From Agromyces sp. LHK192 (lineage in GTDB: Bacteria; Actinomycetota; Actinomycetes; Actinomycetales; Microbacteriaceae), in the NCBI RefSeq assembly GCF_004006235.1, contig NZ_CP034753.1:1-64000 (forward strand): a DNA stretch of 64,000 nucleotides, given 5' to 3'. The position numbers and the translations under genes were made by a program. Positions 39,384-47,612 of this stretch are shown one piece after another. The first letter of the stretch is position 1, and every line of letters starts with the position of its first letter. Below the pieces are notes generated by a model that saw only the letters and a program-made list of their open reading frames with translations, was not told the DNA's origin and made no database searches.

Positions 39384-41717
39384 TTATTCGCGGGAGAGGA
39401 TGGCCTGGGCCTCACGCTCGAGGTCGAGGTACTGCTCCTCGCTCACGTCGACCGCGACGCCCAGCAGCTTCCCGCCCGTGAACGGGAACGGGTTGGCGTA
39501 CCGGCTGCTCACGGCATCGGCGCTGTCGTAGCCGACGCACAGGCCGTCGCCGCAGAGGGTGAACTTGCCGACCTGCGCGCGCATCGGTCCCTCGGCGACG
39601 ACCTGGTCGTCGACGTAGAGCTTCGCCGTCCCGACCGACTCGCCATGCTCGCCCGCGGACTCGCGGATGAACTCGACGCCCAGGGCGTGCGCGCCCGGCG
39701 CGAGTGGCTCCGATTCGAAGTGCTGCTCGGGCGGGATCCCCAGGAAGTTGTACACGTAGTGCAGCTTCCCGTCCTTCAGGAACAACGAGTGGCCGCCGAA
39801 ACGCGAGCCGTGCGCGAAGATCACGCCTTCAGCGCCCTCGTCGAGGATCACGTCGGCGATGATCTTGTAGGAGCGCCCGCGCACGCTCACGGCGACCGAT
39901 TCCGGCACCGCGGTCGTGTCGGGGTAGTAGGTGTAGCGGGTACGCGGTGGCTCCGACTGCGGCCGCTCGATCGTCACCAGTTCGAGTGCGGTGCGATCGT
40001 CGAGCGGGAGCACGAAGTTTTCCTTCGCCTGCTCGTACCAGGCGTCGATCAGCTCCTGCAGCTTCTCCGGTTGCTCGGCTGCCAGGTTCCTGGACTCCGA
40101 GCGGTCCTCGTCGACGTGGTAGAGCTCCCAGACGTCCCGGTCGAAGTTCGACTTGCCGCTGATCGGGGCGTGCACGGCCGACGCCTTCCAGCCGTCCTTC
40201 CAGATGCCACGGGTACCGAGCATCGTGTAGTACTGCACGTGCTTCTCGGTCGGGCCGTCGGGTGCCGCGTCGAAGCTGTACCGCATGGACACGCCGTTGA
40301 GCGGATGCTGCTTCACGCCCCGGTACACGTCGGGCATCTCGAGGCCGACGGCGTCGAGGATCGTCGCCACGATGTCGGTCGAGTGGTGGTACTGGTGCCG
40401 CACCTCGCCCTTCGACTCGAACCCCTTCGGCCAGTGGATCACCATCGGGTCGCACGTGCCGCCCGAGAACTGCGAGTACCGCTTGAACATCTGGAACGGC
40501 GATGAGAACGCTGCCGCCCACCCCGTCGGATAGTGGTTGTACGTGTCCGGCGAACCGATGCGGTCGATCAGCTTGAGGTTCTCCTCCAGGCTGTCGGGGT
40601 ACCCGTTGAAGAACTTGTTCTCGTTCACCGAGCCGTGCGGGCTGCCCTCCGCGGACGCGCCGTTGTCGGCGCAGTAGAAGACCAGGGTGTTCTCCAACTG
40701 CCCGGTCTCTTCGAGGTAGTCGACGATGCGGCCGACCTGCGCGTCGGTGTACTCGGAGAATCCGGCGTACACCTCGGCCATGCGGCAGAACAGTGCCTTC
40801 TCCTCGTCTCCGAGGTCGTCCCACGCGAGCACGAGGTCCGCCGGGTTCGCGACATCCTCGGGGAACGGGTTGAGGGGTGTCAACGCCGTGCCCTCCGGCA
40901 CGATGCCCTTCTCGATCATGCGACCGAGCACCCACTCGCGGTACGCCTCGTAGCCGCCGTCGAACGCACCCTTGTACTTCGCGATGTACTCGTCGGGCGC
41001 GTGGTGCGGTGCGTGGTTCGCGCCGGGGCAGAACCATAGGTACCAGGGCTTCGACGGATTCGACGACTGCTGGTCCCGGAGCATCCGGAGCGCCTGGTCG
41101 GCCAGGTCCTTCGAGAGGTGGTACCCCTCCTCGGGCGAGTACGGCTGCTCGATGAAGTGGTTGTCCTCGACGAGGTCGGGGTACCAGTTGTTGGTCTCGC
41201 CGCCGAGGAACCCGTAGAACCGGTCGAACCCCTTGTTCAGCGGCCACTCCGACTTGCTGCCGCCCGGCGCGAGGTCCTCCTCCGGCACGTTGTGGTTCTT
41301 GCCGACCCAGAAGGTCGAGAAGCCGTTGTCCTGCAGCACCTGGCCGATCGTCGCGCACTCGGCCGGCAGGCGGCCGGCCGAACCGGGGAAGCCGTCGGTG
41401 GCTTCCATGATCGTCGCCACCCGGTTGACGTGGTGGTTGCGGCCGGTGAGGAAGGTCGATCGGGTCGGCGAGCACAGCGCGGTCGTGTGCCACTGCGTGT
41501 ACGTGAGCCCGCCCTGCGCGAGCCGGTCCATCGTGGGCATGTTGATCCCGCCGCCGTACGGCGACCACGCGGCGAGGCCCGTGTCGTCGTACAGCACGAC
41601 GAGCACGTTCGGCGCCCCCTCGGGAGCCTGCTTCAGCGTGTAGGGCGTCCAGTCGGCGACGGAGTCGCGGACGTCGAGCTCGATCTTCCCGTGGAAATCC
41701 GAGTTGAATTCGGACAT
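39384..41717 (-). CDS. Arylsulfatase with CSPTR formylglycine motif
   Basis: A 777-residue sulfatase. The N-terminal metal motif is LYDDTG. The Cys converted to formylglycine is C82 in CSPTRSTFLTGR, the canonical CxPxR form. GKNHNVPEEDL follows. The alkaline-phosphatase-like core runs to about residue 560 and is followed by a C-terminal beta-rich domain. No signal peptide is present, so it is predicted cytoplasmic. The ATG at 41717 follows GGAAGGGG. A 32-residue longer frame is less likely. It converges on SulP and diverges from the second sulfatase. Confidence 0.92.
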   Translation of the reverse strand: MSEFNSDFHGKIELDVRDSVADWTPYTLKQAPEGAPNVLVVLYDDTGLAAWSPYGGGINMPTMDRLAQGGLTYTQWHTTALCSPTRSTFLTGRNHHVNRVATIMEATDGFPGSAGRLPAECATIGQVLQDNGFSTFWVGKNHNVPEEDLAPGGSKSEWPLNKGFDRFYGFLGGETNNWYPDLVEDNHFIEQPYSPEEGYHLSKDLADQALRMLRDQQSSNPSKPWYLWFCPGANHAPHHAPDEYIAKYKGAFDGGYEAYREWVLGRMIEKGIVPEGTALTPLNPFPEDVANPADLVLAWDDLGDEEKALFCRMAEVYAGFSEYTDAQVGRIVDYLEETGQLENTLVFYCADNGASAEGSPHGSVNENKFFNGYPDSLEENLKLIDRIGSPDTYNHYPTGWAAAFSSPFQMFKRYSQFSGGTCDPMVIHWPKGFESKGEVRHQYHHSTDIVATILDAVGLEMPDVYRGVKQHPLNGVSMRYSFDAAPDGPTEKHVQYYTMLGTRGIWKDGWKASAVHAPISGKSNFDRDVWELYHVDEDRSESRNLAAEQPEKLQELIDAWYEQAKENFVLPLDDRTALELVTIERPQSEPPRTRYTYYPDTTAVPESVAVSVRGRSYKIIADVILDEGAEGVIFAHGSRFGGHSLFLKDGKLHYVYNFLGIPPEQHFESEPLAPGAHALGVEFIRESAGEHGESVGTAKLYVDDQVVAEGPMRAQVGKFTLCGDGLCVGYDSADAVSSRYANPFPFTGGKLLGVAVDVSEEQYLDLEREAQAILSRE

Positions 41718-41828
41718 GTGCGGTTCCCCTTCCGGGGGCCGTGATTCCACCCGCCCCCGGACTCGAACGTACCGACGTGGTCCGACGAACGGAAGAGCGC
41801 GGGCACGCCCCACGGCACCGTCGCGGCC

Positions 41829-41834
41829 TAGGAT
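41829..41834 (+). promoter_or_regulatory. Possible -10 box of second sulfatase
   Basis: TAGGAT about 55 bases before the ATG at 41888, in the 170-base gap between divergent sulfatases. A transcript from here would begin with the GC-rich hairpin at 41843-41866. Confidence 0.4.
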
Positions 41835-41842
41835 CAGCGGAG

Positions 41843-41866
41843 GGGGTGCGCGCAGCGCGCGACCCC
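41843..41866 (+). other. GC-rich hairpin in predicted 5' leader
   Basis: GGGGTGCGCGC faces GCGCGCGACCCC with a single central A and one bulged base. It lies between the likely promoter and the ribosome-binding site of the second sulfatase and may affect mRNA stability or translation. Confidence 0.4.
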
Positions 41867-41887
41867 GTCGACCCTGGGGGAGGGAAC

Positions 41888-43387
41888 ATGTCCGACAAGC
41901 CGAACATCCTCATCATCTGGGGCGACGACATCGGCATCAGCAATCTCAGCGCCTACTCCGACGGGCTCATGGGGTATCGCACGCCGAACATCGACCGCAT
42001 CGCGAACGAGGGCGTGAAGTTCACCGACTACTACGGCGAGCAGAGCTGCACCGCGGGGCGCGCGGCGTTCATCACCGGCCAGAACCCGTATCGCACCGGC
42101 CTGACCAAGGTCGGGATGCCCGGCGCTCCGCTCGGACTCCAGGCGGAGGACCCGACGATCGCCACGGCCTTGAAGGCGCAGGGGTACGCGACCGGACAGT
42201 TCGGCAAGAACCACCTCGGCGACCGCGACGAGCACCTGCCGACCGCGCACGGGTTCGACGAGTTCTTCGGCAACCTGTACCACCTGAACGCCGAGGAGGA
42301 GCCCGAGCACCCCGATTATCCGAAGGCCGAGGACTTCCCCGACTTCCGCAAGAACTTCGGCCCGCGCGGGGTCATCCACTCGTGGGCGAACGGCGATGGC
42401 ACGCAGCGCATCGAGGACACCGGGCCGCTCACGAAGAAGCGCATGGAGACGTGCGACGAGGAGTTCCGCGACGCGGCGTCCGAGTTCATCCGGAAGCAGG
42501 CCGACGACGACACGCCGTTCTTCGTGTGGTTCAACTCGACGCACATGCACTTCCGCACCCACCCGAAGCCCGAGAGCATCGGCCGCGCGGGGCGGTGGCA
42601 GTCGGAGTACCACGACACGATGCTCGACCACGACGACCTCGTCGGCGACCTGCTCGACCTGCTCGACGAGCTCGGCATCGCCGACAACACGATCGTCATG
42701 TACTCGACCGACAACGGTCCGCACATGAACTCGTGGCCCGATGCCGGCATGACGCCGTTCCGCAACGAGAAGAACTCGAACTGGGAGGGCGCGTACCGGG
42801 TGCCGGCGATGGTGCGGTGGCCCGGGCACATCCCTGCGGGCACCACGCTGAACGGGATCGTCAGTCACAACGACTGGTTCGTCACGCTGCTCGCTGCCGC
42901 CGGCGACTCGGACATCGCGGAGCGGCTCCTCGAGGGCGCCGACCTCGGCGGCACCGAGTACCGCGTGCACCTGGACGGGCACAACCAGCTCGACTACCTC
43001 ACGGGCGAGGCCGACGAGAGCCCGCGCAAGCACTTCTTCTACGTGTCGGACGACGGCGACCTGACTGCGCTGCGGTTCGACAACTGGAAGATCGTGTTCA
43101 TGGAGCAGCGCGCCGCGGGAACGCTCGACATCTGGCTCGAGCCGTACGTCGAACTCCGCGCCCCGAAGCTGTTCAACCTCCGCACCGACCCGTACGAGCG
43201 CGCCGACATCACCTCGAACACCTACTTCGACTGGATGCTCGACCGCGTCTACCTCTTCATCCCCGCGCAGTCGTACGTGGCGCGGATGCTGCAGACCCTC
43301 GTCGACTTCCCGCAGCGTCAGCGGTCGGCGAGCTTCAGCATCGACCAGGTGCTCGAGAAGCTGAAGACGGTCGGCGGCAGCGCCTGA
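41888..43387 (+). CDS. Arylsulfatase with CTAGR motif
   Basis: A 499-residue sulfatase-family enzyme. The metal motif is IWGDDIGISN. The modifiable Cys is C54 in CTAGRAAFITGQ, with Ala instead of Pro at the second position after Cys. GKNHLGDRDEHLPTAHGFDEF and the C-terminal metal ligands in YSTDNGPHMN are intact. No signal peptide. GGGGGAGGGA precedes the ATG. The sequence is clearly distinct from the divergent neighbour, so the pair is not a recent duplication. Confidence 0.92.
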   Translation: MSDKPNILIIWGDDIGISNLSAYSDGLMGYRTPNIDRIANEGVKFTDYYGEQSCTAGRAAFITGQNPYRTGLTKVGMPGAPLGLQAEDPTIATALKAQGYATGQFGKNHLGDRDEHLPTAHGFDEFFGNLYHLNAEEEPEHPDYPKAEDFPDFRKNFGPRGVIHSWANGDGTQRIEDTGPLTKKRMETCDEEFRDAASEFIRKQADDDTPFFVWFNSTHMHFRTHPKPESIGRAGRWQSEYHDTMLDHDDLVGDLLDLLDELGIADNTIVMYSTDNGPHMNSWPDAGMTPFRNEKNSNWEGAYRVPAMVRWPGHIPAGTTLNGIVSHNDWFVTLLAAAGDSDIAERLLEGADLGGTEYRVHLDGHNQLDYLTGEADESPRKHFFYVSDDGDLTALRFDNWKIVFMEQRAAGTLDIWLEPYVELRAPKLFNLRTDPYERADITSNTYFDWMLDRVYLFIPAQSYVARMLQTLVDFPQRQRSASFSIDQVLEKLKTVGGSA

Positions 43388-43473: not shown

Positions 43474-46014
43474 TCAGGCGTGGTGCCGGCGCTCGAGCGC
43501 CGCGCCCTCCACGTCGACGTCGGGCAGGATGCGGTCGAGCCACTTCGGGATCCACCAGGCCGACTTGCCGAGGAGGTGCATCAGCGCGGGCATGAGGAGC
43601 ATCCGGACGACGAAGGCGTCGATCAGCACGCCGAACGCGAGGCCGAAGCCGATCGAGCGGATCATCGTCGACTCGGCGAACACGAAGCCGCCGAACACCG
43701 AGATCATGATGAGCCCGGCGGCGATGACCACCGAGCGACCGGCTCGGAACCCGCGGGCGACGGCGAGGCGCGCGGGTGCACCGTGCACGTACGCCTCCCG
43801 CATGCCGGTCGACAGGAACAGCTGGTAGTCCATCGCCAGGCCGAACAGGATGCCGACGAGGATCACCGGCAGGAAGCTCAGGATCGGCCCGGTCTGGATG
43901 CCGAGCAGGTCGGCGCCCCAGCCCCACTGGAACAGCGCGGTCGTCGCACCGAACGTCGCGAACAGCGACAGGATGAACCCGCCGGTGGCGATGAGCGGCA
44001 CCAGGATCGACCGGAACACCAGGATCATGATCAGCAGCGAGAGGCCGACGACCACGGTCAGGTAGAGCGGCAGCACTCCGGCGAGGTTCGCGGAGATGTC
44101 GATGTTGATCGCGGCCTGGCCGGCGACGCCGAGCGTGTACTCGTCGTCGCCCGTCGACGACTCGATCGGCGGCAGCTCGCGCAGGTCGCGGACGAGCTGC
44201 TCGGTCGATTCGCTGTTCGGGCCCTCAGCGGGCACGACCTGGAACGCGGTGAGCGTGCCGTCGTCGGAGACGTCGATCGGTGCGACCGCGACGACGTCCT
44301 CCTGGTCGGCGAGGACGGCGGCGATGTCGGCCTGGGCCTGGAGCTGCTCGTCCTCGGTGAGGCCTTCGGGCAGCGTGGCGGTGACGAGCAGCGGGCCATT
44401 GACGCCGGCGCCGAACGCGTTCTCGGTCGCGACGTAGGCGCGGTGCGCGGCGGACTCCTCGGGCTCGGTCGAGCCGTCGGGCAGGCCCACGCGCATGGAC
44501 AGCGACGGGATCGCGATCGCAAGCAGGGCTGCGGCGGTCACGATGACCGTGACGATCGCGCGCCAGGTCGGCATCGGCTTCGCGGCGAGGTCTTCGTGGT
44601 GCACCTCGCCGATCTTCGCGCGAGCCCGCTTGCCGAGTGCACGGTGGCCGAGGAAGCCCAGCAGGGCGGGCGTGAGGCTGATCGCGATGAGCACCGCGAT
44701 GACGACGGCGACCGCGCCGGCGGTACCCATCAGGCCGAGGAACGGCACGCCGGTCACGTTGAGCGCGAACAGGGCGACGACCACCGTGGTACCGGCGAAG
44801 ACGACGGCGTTGCCGGCGGTGCCGTTCGCGAGGCCGATCGACTCGTCGACCTCGGCGCCCTCCAGCAATTGCTTCCGATGTCGGTTGATGATGAACAGCG
44901 AGTAGTCGATGCCGACCGCGAGGCCCAGCATGAGCCCGAGCATGGGCGTGACCGAGGCCATCTGCACGACCCCCGAGAACGCGAGGGTGCCGAGCGCCGC
45001 GATCGCGACGCCGAAGATCGCGGTGAGGATCGGAAACGACGCGGTGATGAGCGAGCCGAGCATCACGATCAGCACGATGCCGGCGAACACGACGCCGACG
45101 ATCTCGCCGACGCCGATGAGCTGCGGCACGCCCTGCGAGATCTCGGTCGAGAACGACACCTCGACGCCGTCGATCGGCTCGGACTCGAAGTGGTCGATGA
45201 CGGCCTGCTTCGACGCTTCGGGCAGCTCCATGCGGGTCTCGCTGAACGCGACGTTGACGAGGGCGGTCGAGCCGTCCTCGGAGACCATGCGGATGCCGTC
45301 GGCGTGCGAGATCAGTTCGGCGCCGAGTTCGACCTTCGCCTCGTTGGCCTCGAGCTCGTCGCGGCCCTCGTCGAGGGTCGCCTGCTGGTCTTCGAGCTGC
45401 TGTCGGCCCGCGTCGAGCTGTGCCTGCTGCGCGTCGAGCTGCGCCTGCTGCTCGTCGAGCGCGGCGAGCTGCTGCTCGGGGGCGCCCGCGGCCTCGGCCT
45501 GCTGGCGGGCCGCGTCGAGTTGCGCCTGTCCGGCGTCGAGCTGCTGCTGACCGGCGTCGAGCTGGGCGGAGGCGGCATCGAGCTGCGCCTGGCCCGCGTC
45601 GAGTTCGGCACGGCCGTCGTCGATCTGCTGCTGCCCGTCGGCCAGCTCCTGCTGACGGTCGGCGAGCTCCTGCTGCGTCTCGAACGGGTCGCGGACCTCG
45701 GCGACGTCCGGCAGGTCGGTCGCGCTGTCGACGAGCGCGGTGATCTCGGCCTGCTGCTCGGCGGTGAGCGGCTCGCCGTCGACGGTCTGGAACACGACGG
45801 TGCCGGATGCCCCGGCGTAGTCGGGCAGAGCCTCCTCGAGCTCGGCGACGACGTCGCCGGATGCGGTGCCGGGCACGTCGAAGCTGGTCGCGAGGCCCTT
45901 GAACCCGACCAGGAATCCGCCGACCGCGATCGCGAGGACCGCGAGCCAGGCGGTGACGACCACCCAGCCTCGTCGTGCGGCGAACTTGCCGAGTCGATAG
46001 AGCAGTTCCGCCAT
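43474..46014 (-). CDS. MMPL family transporter
   Basis: An 846-residue RND-superfamily exporter with two halves, each an extracytoplasmic loop plus about six helices. The motif GLAVGIDYSLFIINR in the first half and GLAMDYQLFLSTGMR in the second mark the proton-relay helices. The first loop (about residues 108-230) contains a long Gln/Asp/Leu-rich heptad array (LDAGQAQ-type units), predicted coiled coil. Such transporters export lipids or related compounds. The ATG at 46014 is divergent from the TetR-hydrolase fusion, which probably regulates it. Confidence 0.93.
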   Translation of the reverse strand: MAELLYRLGKFAARRGWVVVTAWLAVLAIAVGGFLVGFKGLATSFDVPGTASGDVVAELEEALPDYAGASGTVVFQTVDGEPLTAEQQAEITALVDSATDLPDVAEVRDPFETQQELADRQQELADGQQQIDDGRAELDAGQAQLDAASAQLDAGQQQLDAGQAQLDAARQQAEAAGAPEQQLAALDEQQAQLDAQQAQLDAGRQQLEDQQATLDEGRDELEANEAKVELGAELISHADGIRMVSEDGSTALVNVAFSETRMELPEASKQAVIDHFESEPIDGVEVSFSTEISQGVPQLIGVGEIVGVVFAGIVLIVMLGSLITASFPILTAIFGVAIAALGTLAFSGVVQMASVTPMLGLMLGLAVGIDYSLFIINRHRKQLLEGAEVDESIGLANGTAGNAVVFAGTTVVVALFALNVTGVPFLGLMGTAGAVAVVIAVLIAISLTPALLGFLGHRALGKRARAKIGEVHHEDLAAKPMPTWRAIVTVIVTAAALLAIAIPSLSMRVGLPDGSTEPEESAAHRAYVATENAFGAGVNGPLLVTATLPEGLTEDEQLQAQADIAAVLADQEDVVAVAPIDVSDDGTLTAFQVVPAEGPNSESTEQLVRDLRELPPIESSTGDDEYTLGVAGQAAINIDISANLAGVLPLYLTVVVGLSLLIMILVFRSILVPLIATGGFILSLFATFGATTALFQWGWGADLLGIQTGPILSFLPVILVGILFGLAMDYQLFLSTGMREAYVHGAPARLAVARGFRAGRSVVIAAGLIMISVFGGFVFAESTMIRSIGFGLAFGVLIDAFVVRMLLMPALMHLLGKSAWWIPKWLDRILPDVDVEGAALERRHHA

Positions 46015-46088: not shown

Positions 46089-46112
46089 GGCGACCGCATC
46101 CAAGAATACGCA

Positions 46113-46121
46113 ACGGTCCGT
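46113..46121. promoter_or_regulatory. Candidate operator 2 (ACGGTCCGT)
   Basis: A second 4-base-arm palindrome with the same core as the site at 46078, centres 34 bases apart. It lies inside the wider inverted repeat CAACG...CGTTG (46111-46128) and overlaps the expected -35 region of the TetR-hydrolase promoter. Confidence 0.5.
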
Positions 46122-46136
46122 CTCGTTGTCTGAATC

Positions 46137-46142
46137 TAAGAT
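46137..46142 (+). promoter_or_regulatory. -10 box of TetR-hydrolase gene
   Basis: TAAGAT ends 6 bases before the ATG at 46149. No clear ribosome-binding site is seen, so a leaderless start is likely. Confidence 0.5.
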
Positions 46143-46148
46143 GTGAGG

Positions 46149-47612
46149 ATGGCGGAGGGACGACGCGGGGCGACGAGGAGCGAGGCGGCGCGGGTGGCGA
46201 TCCTGCAGGCGACCGCGGCGCAGTTCGCCGAGCGGGGGTACGACGGCCTGAGCATGGAGGGCATCGCGGCCGCGGCCGGCGTCGGCAAGCAGACGATCTA
46301 CCGCTGGTGGTCGTCGAAGGCCGCGCTGGTGGCCGACTGCCTGATCGAGGGCCTGCTCCTGCCCGACCACTTCGCACCCGTCGACACGGGCGACCTGCGC
46401 GGTGACTTCGTCGCATGGCTCGACCTCGTACTCGACTTCTTCGCGCAGCCCGCCAACGCCGGACTCGTCCGCTCGCTCGTCGCCGCGGCGACGGCCGACG
46501 ACGCCGTCGCCACCGGCCTCCAGGAACGGATCGGAGGGGCGTCGGCGCTCGGCGCTCGGCTCGCCGCCGGCATCGCGGCCGGCCAGTTGCGAGCGGATGC
46601 CCCGGTCGCCGAGATCATCGAGGCGTTCGTCGGATTCCTGACCCTGCGCGCACTGAGTCCGATGCCCGTGCCGCCCGGCACCGCACACCGGCTCGTGGAT
46701 GCCCTGTTGACGCCGAGCGCGGGCGGCGAGACATCCGGTCGGGAAACCGGCTCGGCTGGTCTCGCGGAGCGCCGCTCGAGCGTTCGCGACGTCGTCTACC
46801 TGGAGCGGCCCGGATTCCGGCCGCTCGCCCTCGACCTGCACCTGCCGCCGCGATCCGAATCGGATGCCGCTGCCCCGCTCGTCGTGTTCGTGCACGGCGG
46901 CGGTTGGCAGCAGGGGAGCCGGCGCGACTTCGGGCCGGAGATCCTCGACGCGTTCGAGCGGATCGCCGCCGCCGGTTTCGCCGTCGCCTCGGTCGACTAC
47001 CGGCTCAGCGCGGAGGCGGTGTTCCCCGCGCAGGTCGACGACGTCGTCGCCGCGATCGGATGGCTCCGCGCGCGGGCGCCGCAGTTCCGCATCGCCGCCG
47101 ACCGCGTGGTGCTGTGGGGCGAGTCGGCGGGCGCGACGATCGCGTCGCTCACCGCGCTCGAACTGCTCGGCACGGATGCCCCGCCGCGCGGCGTCGTGCA
47201 CTGGTACGGACCGACCGACCTGATCGACCACGCCAGGCTCCTCGGCCGGACGACCGACCCCGAGTGCGCCGAAGCCCGCTGGCTCGGCGCCACGGCGGGT
47301 GAGCGGCCCGACCTCGCGGCGGCGGCCAGCCCCGCCCTGCGGGTGCGCGCCGAATTGGTGGGCGTCGACCCGGTTCGCGCCGACTCGCGCGACGCGGCGG
47401 CGGCTCCGCTCCCGCCCTTCCTCATCGTGAACGGCACCGCAGACACCGCCGTGCCCCACTCGCAGGCCGAGTCGTTCGCCAAGGCGATCGACTCGGCGGG
47501 CGGTGAGGTCGAACTCGTGCTCGTCGACGGGGCGGGCCACCGCTTCGAGGGCGACGTCGACCGCGACGCGCTGCTCGAGCAGGCCATCGCGTTCGCAGGT
47601 CGCGTCGTCTGA
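46149..47612 (+). CDS. TetR regulator fused to alpha/beta hydrolase
   Basis: One uninterrupted 487-residue frame with two complete domains. Residues about 9-60 are a TetR-type HTH (GVGKQTIYRWWSSKAALV), and about 65-190 are the helical ligand-binding part. A short Gly/Ser/Glu linker (about 195-210) leads to an esterase of the BD-FAE/carboxylesterase type. That domain has an intact oxyanion motif HGGGW (H249) and catalytic triad S326 in GESAG, D432 in GTADTAVP and H464 in GAGHRFEG. No internal start with a ribosome-binding site is seen at the junction. Divergent from the MMPL transporter. It may repress the transporter and hydrolyse its inducer, but both roles are inferred. A GTG at 46143 is an alternative start. 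Confidence 0.88.
   Translation: MAEGRRGATRSEAARVAILQATAAQFAERGYDGLSMEGIAAAAGVGKQTIYRWWSSKAALVADCLIEGLLLPDHFAPVDTGDLRGDFVAWLDLVLDFFAQPANAGLVRSLVAAATADDAVATGLQERIGGASALGARLAAGIAAGQLRADAPVAEIIEAFVGFLTLRALSPMPVPPGTAHRLVDALLTPSAGGETSGRETGSAGLAERRSSVRDVVYLERPGFRPLALDLHLPPRSESDAAAPLVVFVHGGGWQQGSRRDFGPEILDAFERIAAAGFAVASVDYRLSAEAVFPAQVDDVVAAIGWLRARAPQFRIAADRVVLWGESAGATIASLTALELLGTDAPPRGVVHWYGPTDLIDHARLLGRTTDPECAEARWLGATAGERPDLAAAASPALRVRAELVGVDPVRADSRDAAAAPLPPFLIVNGTADTAVPHSQAESFAKAIDSAGGEVELVLVDGAGHRFEGDVDRDALLEQAIAFAGRVV

What the first reader, a model, noticed from the sequence alone, without database searches (positions are those of the whole stretch)
46149..47612. TetR regulator fused in frame to a complete alpha/beta hydrolase
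A single open frame joins a TetR DNA-binding and ligand domain to an esterase with an intact HGGGW motif and Ser-Asp-His triad. Regulators fused to an active-looking hydrolase are rare. The obvious hypothesis is a repressor that destroys its own inducer, giving a self-timed response that controls the divergent MMPL exporter. It could also be a moonlighting esterase whose location on DNA is regulated.
Basis: partly seen in the sequence, partly recalled or inferred. Interest (0 to 1): 0.75.

Follow-up and report, generated by a model that had tools for sequence, protein, structure and literature searches.

The report
Exporter repressor fused to an esterase
In a few Agromyces soil bacteria the gene switch that sits beside an export pump has become one protein with an intact-looking ester-cutting enzyme, a rare pairing that could let one molecule sense, pump out and break down the same kind of compound.

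Summary
Window 46149-47612 encodes one 487-aa protein: a complete TetR repressor (TetR_N + TetR_C_11), a disordered linker (192-207) and a complete BD-FAE/Abhydrolase_3 esterase with Ser326-Asp432-His464. It is not a frameshift: two other Agromyces genomes carry it full length at 70% and 67% identity, with linkers that differ by whole codons (3 of 60 genus genomes). Samples of 398 family and 396 order genomes gave full-length matches only in this genome and one of those two. The TetR half looks functional: divergent MMPL exporter (13 of 13 loci tested) and an operator palindrome (46108-46126) in 18 of 19 Agromyces TetR loci, once in this genome. The esterase comes from another gene family: 16 of the 21 stand-alone relatives I held follow a QueD-like quercetinase gene, so a phenolic-ester substrate is plausible. 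Best reading: a bifunctional, autorepressed repressor-esterase that couples export with hydrolysis of phenolic esters. "Destroys its own inducer" is possible, untested and not required. New variant of a known kind.

The parts
46149..47612 (+). TetR-esterase fusion gene, 487 aa, ATG start, TGA stop
46149..46346 (+). DNA-binding domain (residues 1-66; TetR_N 18-63), with GKQTIYRWW
   Evidence: Pfam; 86% and 77% identical in the two other fusions; matches Ms6564, 4jl3
46380..46703 (+). TetR_C_11 ligand/dimer domain (residues 78-185)
   Evidence: Pfam; model
46716..46781 (+). linker (residues about 190-211), pLDDT under 50 at 192-207; none of the four in-frame start-like codons found nearby in this species has a Shine-Dalgarno-like stretch
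46782..47609 (+). esterase domain (residues 212-487), BD-FAE / Abhydrolase_3
46893..46907 (+). HGGGW oxyanion-hole motif (residues 249-253)
47124..47126 (+). catalytic Ser326 in GESAG
47442..47444 (+). catalytic Asp432
47538..47540 (+). catalytic His464; at 466 the 3 fusions have Phe where 20 of 21 stand-alone relatives have Trp
46108..46126 (.). operator-like palindrome ACGCAACGGTCCGTCTCGT
   Evidence: same kind of site in 18 of 19 Agromyces TetR loci; only site in this genome with up to 1 mismatch
46137..46142 (+). possible -10 (TAAGAT), six bases between it and the ATG, suggesting a leaderless mRNA and an operator over the -35 region (inference; the consensus scan found no sigma-70 promoter)
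   Evidence: sequence; a TAnnnT at this place in 19 of 19 Agromyces loci, read by eye from the output; scan negative
43474..46014 (-). divergent MMPL exporter gene (846 aa)
   Evidence: Pfam MMPL 7.5e-78; divergent pair in 13 of 13 loci

Best explanation
A single bifunctional protein. Its TetR half is the local repressor of the divergent MMPL exporter and of its own gene, binding the palindrome at 46108-46126 as a dimer or pair of dimers. Its C-terminal half is a working serine esterase tethered by a flexible linker, so each repressor dimer carries two esterases. When an inducer loosens the repressor, exporter and repressor-esterase are made together, so export and ester hydrolysis are switched on as one detoxification response. 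The esterase was taken from a gene family that often stands beside quercetinase-like cupins, so its substrate is probably a small phenolic (aryl) ester. Shown here: one open frame in three species, both domains intact, an operator-like palindrome that is conserved and unique in this genome, the divergent exporter, the family context. Inferred: repression, autoregulation, catalysis, the phenolic substrate, and any link between substrate and inducer.
For: Full-length fusion in 3 of 60 Agromyces genomes with whole-codon indels in the linker. Esterase start codon lost: the stand-alone genes of G052 and G021 begin MRDVVYAE, the fusions read S-V-R-D, V-L-R-D and V-L-R-D there. The DNA-binding part is the most conserved segment in all three pairs. 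Operator pattern in 18 of 19 Agromyces loci (3 fused, 16 unfused) against 81 of 3800 random 150-bp stretches of the same loci (which can include the operator itself) and 15 of 3450 of other loci; unique in the genome; a pattern of this kind also upstream in 28 of 80 TetR loci from other genomes. MMPL gene divergent and adjacent in 13 of 13 close TetR loci tested, 3 fused and 10 unfused (the other 6 unfused loci were not tested for it). Catalytic columns identical in 24 of 24. QueD-like neighbour in 16 of 21 stand-alone loci held, one of them compared with the PDB: QueD quercetinase, 5.9e-37. Parallel: MAB_4384 represses a divergent MmpS5/MmpL5 pump, regulates itself, has one operator, and pump substrates are its effectors (PMC5895659, passages).
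Against: No expression, binding or activity data. The fusing species lack the QueD-like cupin: 0 of 6 genomes, G000, G001 and G053 among them (in the control search the query rings in 3 of 4, G000 being the miss), so the usual family context is gone. The Trp-to-Phe difference beside the catalytic His may mean a changed substrate. G001 has an internal GTG (residue 220) with GGAGG upstream, so a separate esterase product is conceivable there. 52 of 80 TetR loci from other genomes show no operator of the pattern used, and G006 has only its core. The fusion is confined to three of the genomes sampled, and the gyrB tree does not make these a group of their own.
Confidence: 0.6

Rival explanations
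1. Self-limiting repressor: the esterase hydrolyses the very ligand that induces the TetR half, so the response shuts itself off.
For: Physical tether and intact catalytic residues; a TetR of an MMPL pump can take pump substrates as effectors (PMC5895659, passages); phenolic context of the esterase family; QdoR of B. subtilis, which responds to quercetin, represses a quercetin dioxygenase and itself (PMC8481877, passages).
Against: No ligand known; a separate esterase gene in the same regulon would do the same; nothing in the sequence ties the two pockets to one molecule.
Confidence: 0.27
2. Co-expression only: two genes of the same chromosomal zone became one by loss of a stop and a start codon; both halves work independently and the fusion just keeps them under one operator.
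For: TetR alone and esterase alone each occur in the gyrB-near zone, on gyrB's strand, in some other species; low-confidence linker of varying length; the esterase is not a usual neighbour of the TetR: 1 of 80 TetR loci has any esterase match, weak at 33%.
Against: The fusion is kept in three species that differ by 30% and more in protein sequence, rather than being two genes.
Confidence: 0.4
3. The esterase domain has become a catalytically idle sensor or dimer prop for the repressor.
For: Two positions where the three fusions share a residue that differs from that of 19-20 of 21 stand-alone relatives, one of them near the active site (V427, F466).
Against: Ser, Asp, His and oxyanion glycines kept in all three; dN below dS in the esterase part (dS rough).
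Confidence: 0.08
4. Sequencing or assembly artefact, or a chance frame.
For: One public copy (CFH 90414) is given as a 321-aa hydrolase only, and P0002 starts late.
Against: Same frame open in three separate assemblies with differing linkers.
Confidence: 0.01

Closest known systems
TetR repressors of divergent MMPL pumps, e.g. MAB_4384 of Mycobacterium abscessus (PMC5895659, passages)
   Same: TetR gene divergent from an MMPL transporter, palindrome between them, one operator in the genome; autoregulation (there shown, here inferred)
   Different: No enzyme domain is described for it in the passages seen; operator sequences were not compared
Ms6564 of M. smegmatis (PDB 4jl3; identity of the entry from PMC4150764, passages)
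   Same: Closest solved TetR by sequence, residues 5-128, with the same GKQTIYRWW
   Different: 196-residue chain without hydrolase; called a global regulator in PMC4150764; the best match stops before the end of the ligand domain
BD-FAE / Abhydrolase_3 esterases (6nkf Lip_vut4, 6xyc, 6tkx, 5ao9 Est2)
   Different: Not fused to a regulator; 24-28% identical
QdoR (YxaF) - QdoI system of Bacillus subtilis (PMC8481877, passages)
   Same: A quercetin-responsive regulator that represses a quercetinase and itself; analogy of regulator plus phenolic-degrading enzyme (that QdoR is of the TetR family is recalled)
   Different: Separate genes; the enzyme is a dioxygenase, not an esterase; no sequence comparison made

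Membership tests
TetR family (TetR_N + TetR_C_11) | N-terminal HTH and C-terminal helical domain above Pfam cut-offs | tested here: met
   58.3 and 70.9 bits against 24 and 32
TetR family (TetR_N + TetR_C_11) | binds a palindromic operator near its own gene | tested here: inconclusive
   conserved palindrome found; binding not measured
TetR regulator of a divergent MMPL pump | divergent to the transporter gene with a palindrome between them | tested here: met
TetR regulator of a divergent MMPL pump | represses the pump; relieved by ligand | not testable with these tools
   needs gel shifts and expression assays
BD-FAE / Abhydrolase_3 serine esterases | profile match, HGGGW, GxSxG, Asp, His | tested here: met
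BD-FAE / Abhydrolase_3 serine esterases | esterase activity | not testable with these tools
   no assay
QueD-linked hydrolases (a context group seen here, not a named family) | gene directly downstream of a QueD-like cupin | tested here: not met
   no such cupin found in G000, G001 or G053 (control); the stand-alone relatives have it in 16 of 21 loci

The most novel reading that the evidence does not exclude
A repressor that times its own response: the esterase half hydrolyses a plant-derived phenolic ester that is the ligand of the TetR half of the same polypeptide, so induction of the MMPL exporter ends when the signal has been consumed at the repressor itself.
Probability: 0.22. Interest if true: 0.8.

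Novelty: new variant of a known kind. Interest (0 to 1): 0.52.

Why it matters
TetR repressors are a very common kind of bacterial one-component switch and normally only bind their ligand (recalled). A natural TetR fused to an intact-looking esterase, beside an exporter and with its operator kept, would let one test directly whether ligand sensing and ligand destruction can be coupled in one molecule. It also yields a practical lead: the esterase family's frequent place behind QueD-like quercetinase genes suggests an enzyme for the depside step of flavonol breakdown (PMC5557065, passages, says that this step is done by an esterase).

Tried and rejected
Frameshift or chance frame: rejected. Other TetR-esterase fusions hidden in long open frames round stand-alone esterases: eleven loci fetched, L061 read too. 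Five show an upstream part over 100 residues (L175, L176, L181, L182, L061), with codon-position GC unlike the esterase's; L174, L183 and L184 show short ones and L177-L180 printed nothing. In all twelve a cupin gene in another frame or ending before the esterase precedes it, so no fusion is indicated. TetR matches in long open frames: six fetched, all six stop after 191-199 residues, so the length lies upstream of the start or beyond the stop; the other long TetR frames of that list were not looked at.

One event with plain vertical descent is not settled: the esterase tree joins the three (93/75, 94% of bootstrap trees, not starred), the TetR tree does not resolve it (14% of bootstrap trees), and gyrB puts G053 with G042, G007 and G023 (88/97), so loss or transfer must be allowed. 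The operator against chance in the window with up to two mismatches is uninformative (2 found, 2.45 expected; the 2 are one site on both strands), and the pattern was drawn from these sites; the case rests on conservation between species. Sigma-70 scan: no promoter. The 21 stand-alone esterase loci are those that I held, not a random sample; most of the eleven were picked for long open frames. Literature on a TetR-hydrolase fusion; no listed title or abstract start describes one; only the listings were seen and only open-licence papers are held.

Full report

Is it real. A search of 60 genus genomes gives full-length matches in three: this one, G001 (70%) and G053 (67%), without stops. The three linkers differ in length by whole codons. 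Contig lengths identify G001 with Agromyces sp. CFH 90414 and G053 with Agromyces sp. G08B096. The public copy of the first is only 321 aa, starting at an internal ATG (P0004), although its DNA is open for 505 codons; so annotation hides the fusion there. In this genome none of the four in-frame start-like codons near the junction has a Shine-Dalgarno-like stretch; in G001 one GTG has one, in G053 none. An internal start therefore remains possible in G001.

How rare. In 398 family genomes (E up to 1e-40) 76 match and only G000 and G053 are full length; in 396 order genomes (E up to 1e-45) 25 match and again only these two. The samples overlap, G001 is not among the matches of either, and only the best three or four candidates of each genome were scored. 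A protein search with the TetR half that allows whole lengths of 268-852 aa found nine proteins, of which only P0002 (this protein) and P0003 (G053) carry hydrolase domains. Six TetR matches in long frames and twelve esterase loci were looked at more closely and show no further fusion.

Where the TetR half comes from. Sixteen more of the 60 genus genomes have the TetR as a separate gene (48-62% identity); all sixteen stop after 187-203 residues. In the 13 larger loci tested, 3 fused and 10 unfused, the MMPL gene is divergent beside it in 13 of 13; the more distant TetR of G036 (39%) has none near. Among 80 TetR loci from genome contigs 34 have an MMPL match and one a weak esterase match, so the TetR-MMPL pair is widespread and the esterase is a newcomer. 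The palindrome upstream is found in 18 of 19 Agromyces loci; the nineteenth (G006) has the core only. Random 150-bp stretches of the same loci had it in 81 of 3800 draws (the operator itself included), and of other loci in 15 of 3450, both strands. In this genome it occurs once with up to one mismatch, the backwards control nowhere. Related palindromes, some perfect (ACGAGACG-nnn-CGTCTCGT), lie upstream in 28 of the 80 other loci, among them Mycobacterium, Nocardia, Rhodococcus and Streptomyces. The site here ends 22 bp before the ATG. A TAAGAT with six bases between it and the ATG suggests a leaderless transcript whose -35 region the operator covers; a TAnnnT stands at this place in 19 of 19 Agromyces loci (my reading of the output). 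The consensus scan found no promoter.

Where the esterase comes from. Its nearest relatives with known context are stand-alone genes in G052 and G021, which follow a short cupin gene; that of G052 passes the NCBIfam cut-off for (R)-mandelonitrile lyase (160.7 against 140). In 16 of the 21 stand-alone loci that I held an ORF of 177-235 codons precedes the esterase, ending 107-182 bases before its HGGGW codon, and all 16 are related to that of G149 (43-75% identity, itself apart). Those of G149 and G058 were scanned and are Cupin_2 proteins; that of G149 was compared with the PDB and is closest to QueD quercetinase (5fli, 5.9e-37, residues 2-183). G059, G040 and G041 showed no such gene; in G059 and G040 an arylsulfatase-like gene follows that is 80% and 83% identical to the one at window 39384-41813. 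Quercetinase makes a depside, a diphenolic ester (PMC4416304, passages), and an esterase is said to finish the pathway (PMC5557065, passages). No QueD-like cupin was found in the fused species (control), and all three fusions have Phe where 20 of 21 stand-alone esterases have Trp, two residues after the catalytic His. The substrate may therefore have shifted.

How the two met. From the coordinates, the fused gene lies about 39, 48 and 42 kb from gyrB in G000, G001 and G053. The esterase alone lies about 43 kb from gyrB in G052 and G040 and 76 kb in G059 (on another contig in G021, G041 and G058). TetR alone lies 35-54 kb away in G015, G056, G030, G039 and G005, over 190 kb away in G042, G006, G008 and G054, and on another contig in the other seven. 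All the near ones are on gyrB's strand and downstream of it. So both genes often live in the same zone near gyrB; a rearrangement there could have put them head to tail, after which a stop and a start codon were lost. No genome sampled shows both, unfused, in that zone, so this is inference. The esterase tree joins the three fusions (93/75), the TetR tree is undecided, and gyrB places them in one seven-genome clade but not as a group of their own.

Mechanism. The evidence supports a repressor that still has its operator and exporter, joined to an esterase that still has its catalytic residues. Both would be induced together. Whether the esterase consumes the inducer, a relative of it, or something else cannot be told from sequence. 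MAB_4384 shows that such a TetR can be induced by the pump's own substrates, and QdoR shows a repressor tied to quercetin breakdown; these are analogies, not membership.

Verdict. Real, conserved in three species, rare and testable; a new variant of a known kind (a TetR regulator of an MMPL exporter with an added enzyme). The listings, which cover open-licence papers only, show no paper on a TetR-hydrolase fusion.

Noticed in passing
L049, L058-L061, L174-L184: A conserved gene pair: QueD-like cupin followed directly by this esterase, in 16 of 21 stand-alone loci held; a candidate flavonol dioxygenase plus depside esterase pair.
   Followed up: partly
window 39384-41813 (-) and L044, L045: Arylsulfatase-like gene 80-83% identical to the gene that follows the stand-alone esterase in G059 and G040; a second sulfatase-like gene (41741-43387) lies beside the MMPL gene here and in G001, where what looks by eye like a sulfatase-activating enzyme gene follows.
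   Followed up: partly
P0127: A 269-aa protein named AcrR family regulator/ferredoxin by its source, with TetR_N and two further domain matches: another TetR fusion.
   Followed up: no
P0110: A 305-aa protein with both cupin and hydrolase domain matches, possibly the cupin-esterase pair fused or misread.
   Followed up: no
upstream of TetR genes in L085, L099, L105-L109, L122, L129, L130, L141, L143: Perfect or near-perfect ACGAGACG-nnn-CGTCTCGT palindromes; with others, 28 of 80 loci: perhaps a common operator of this TetR group across actinobacteria.
   Followed up: partly
P0004 (Agromyces sp. CFH 90414), L038: The public protein is only a 321-aa hydrolase although the DNA is open for the whole fusion; such fusions may be under-reported.
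   Followed up: yes
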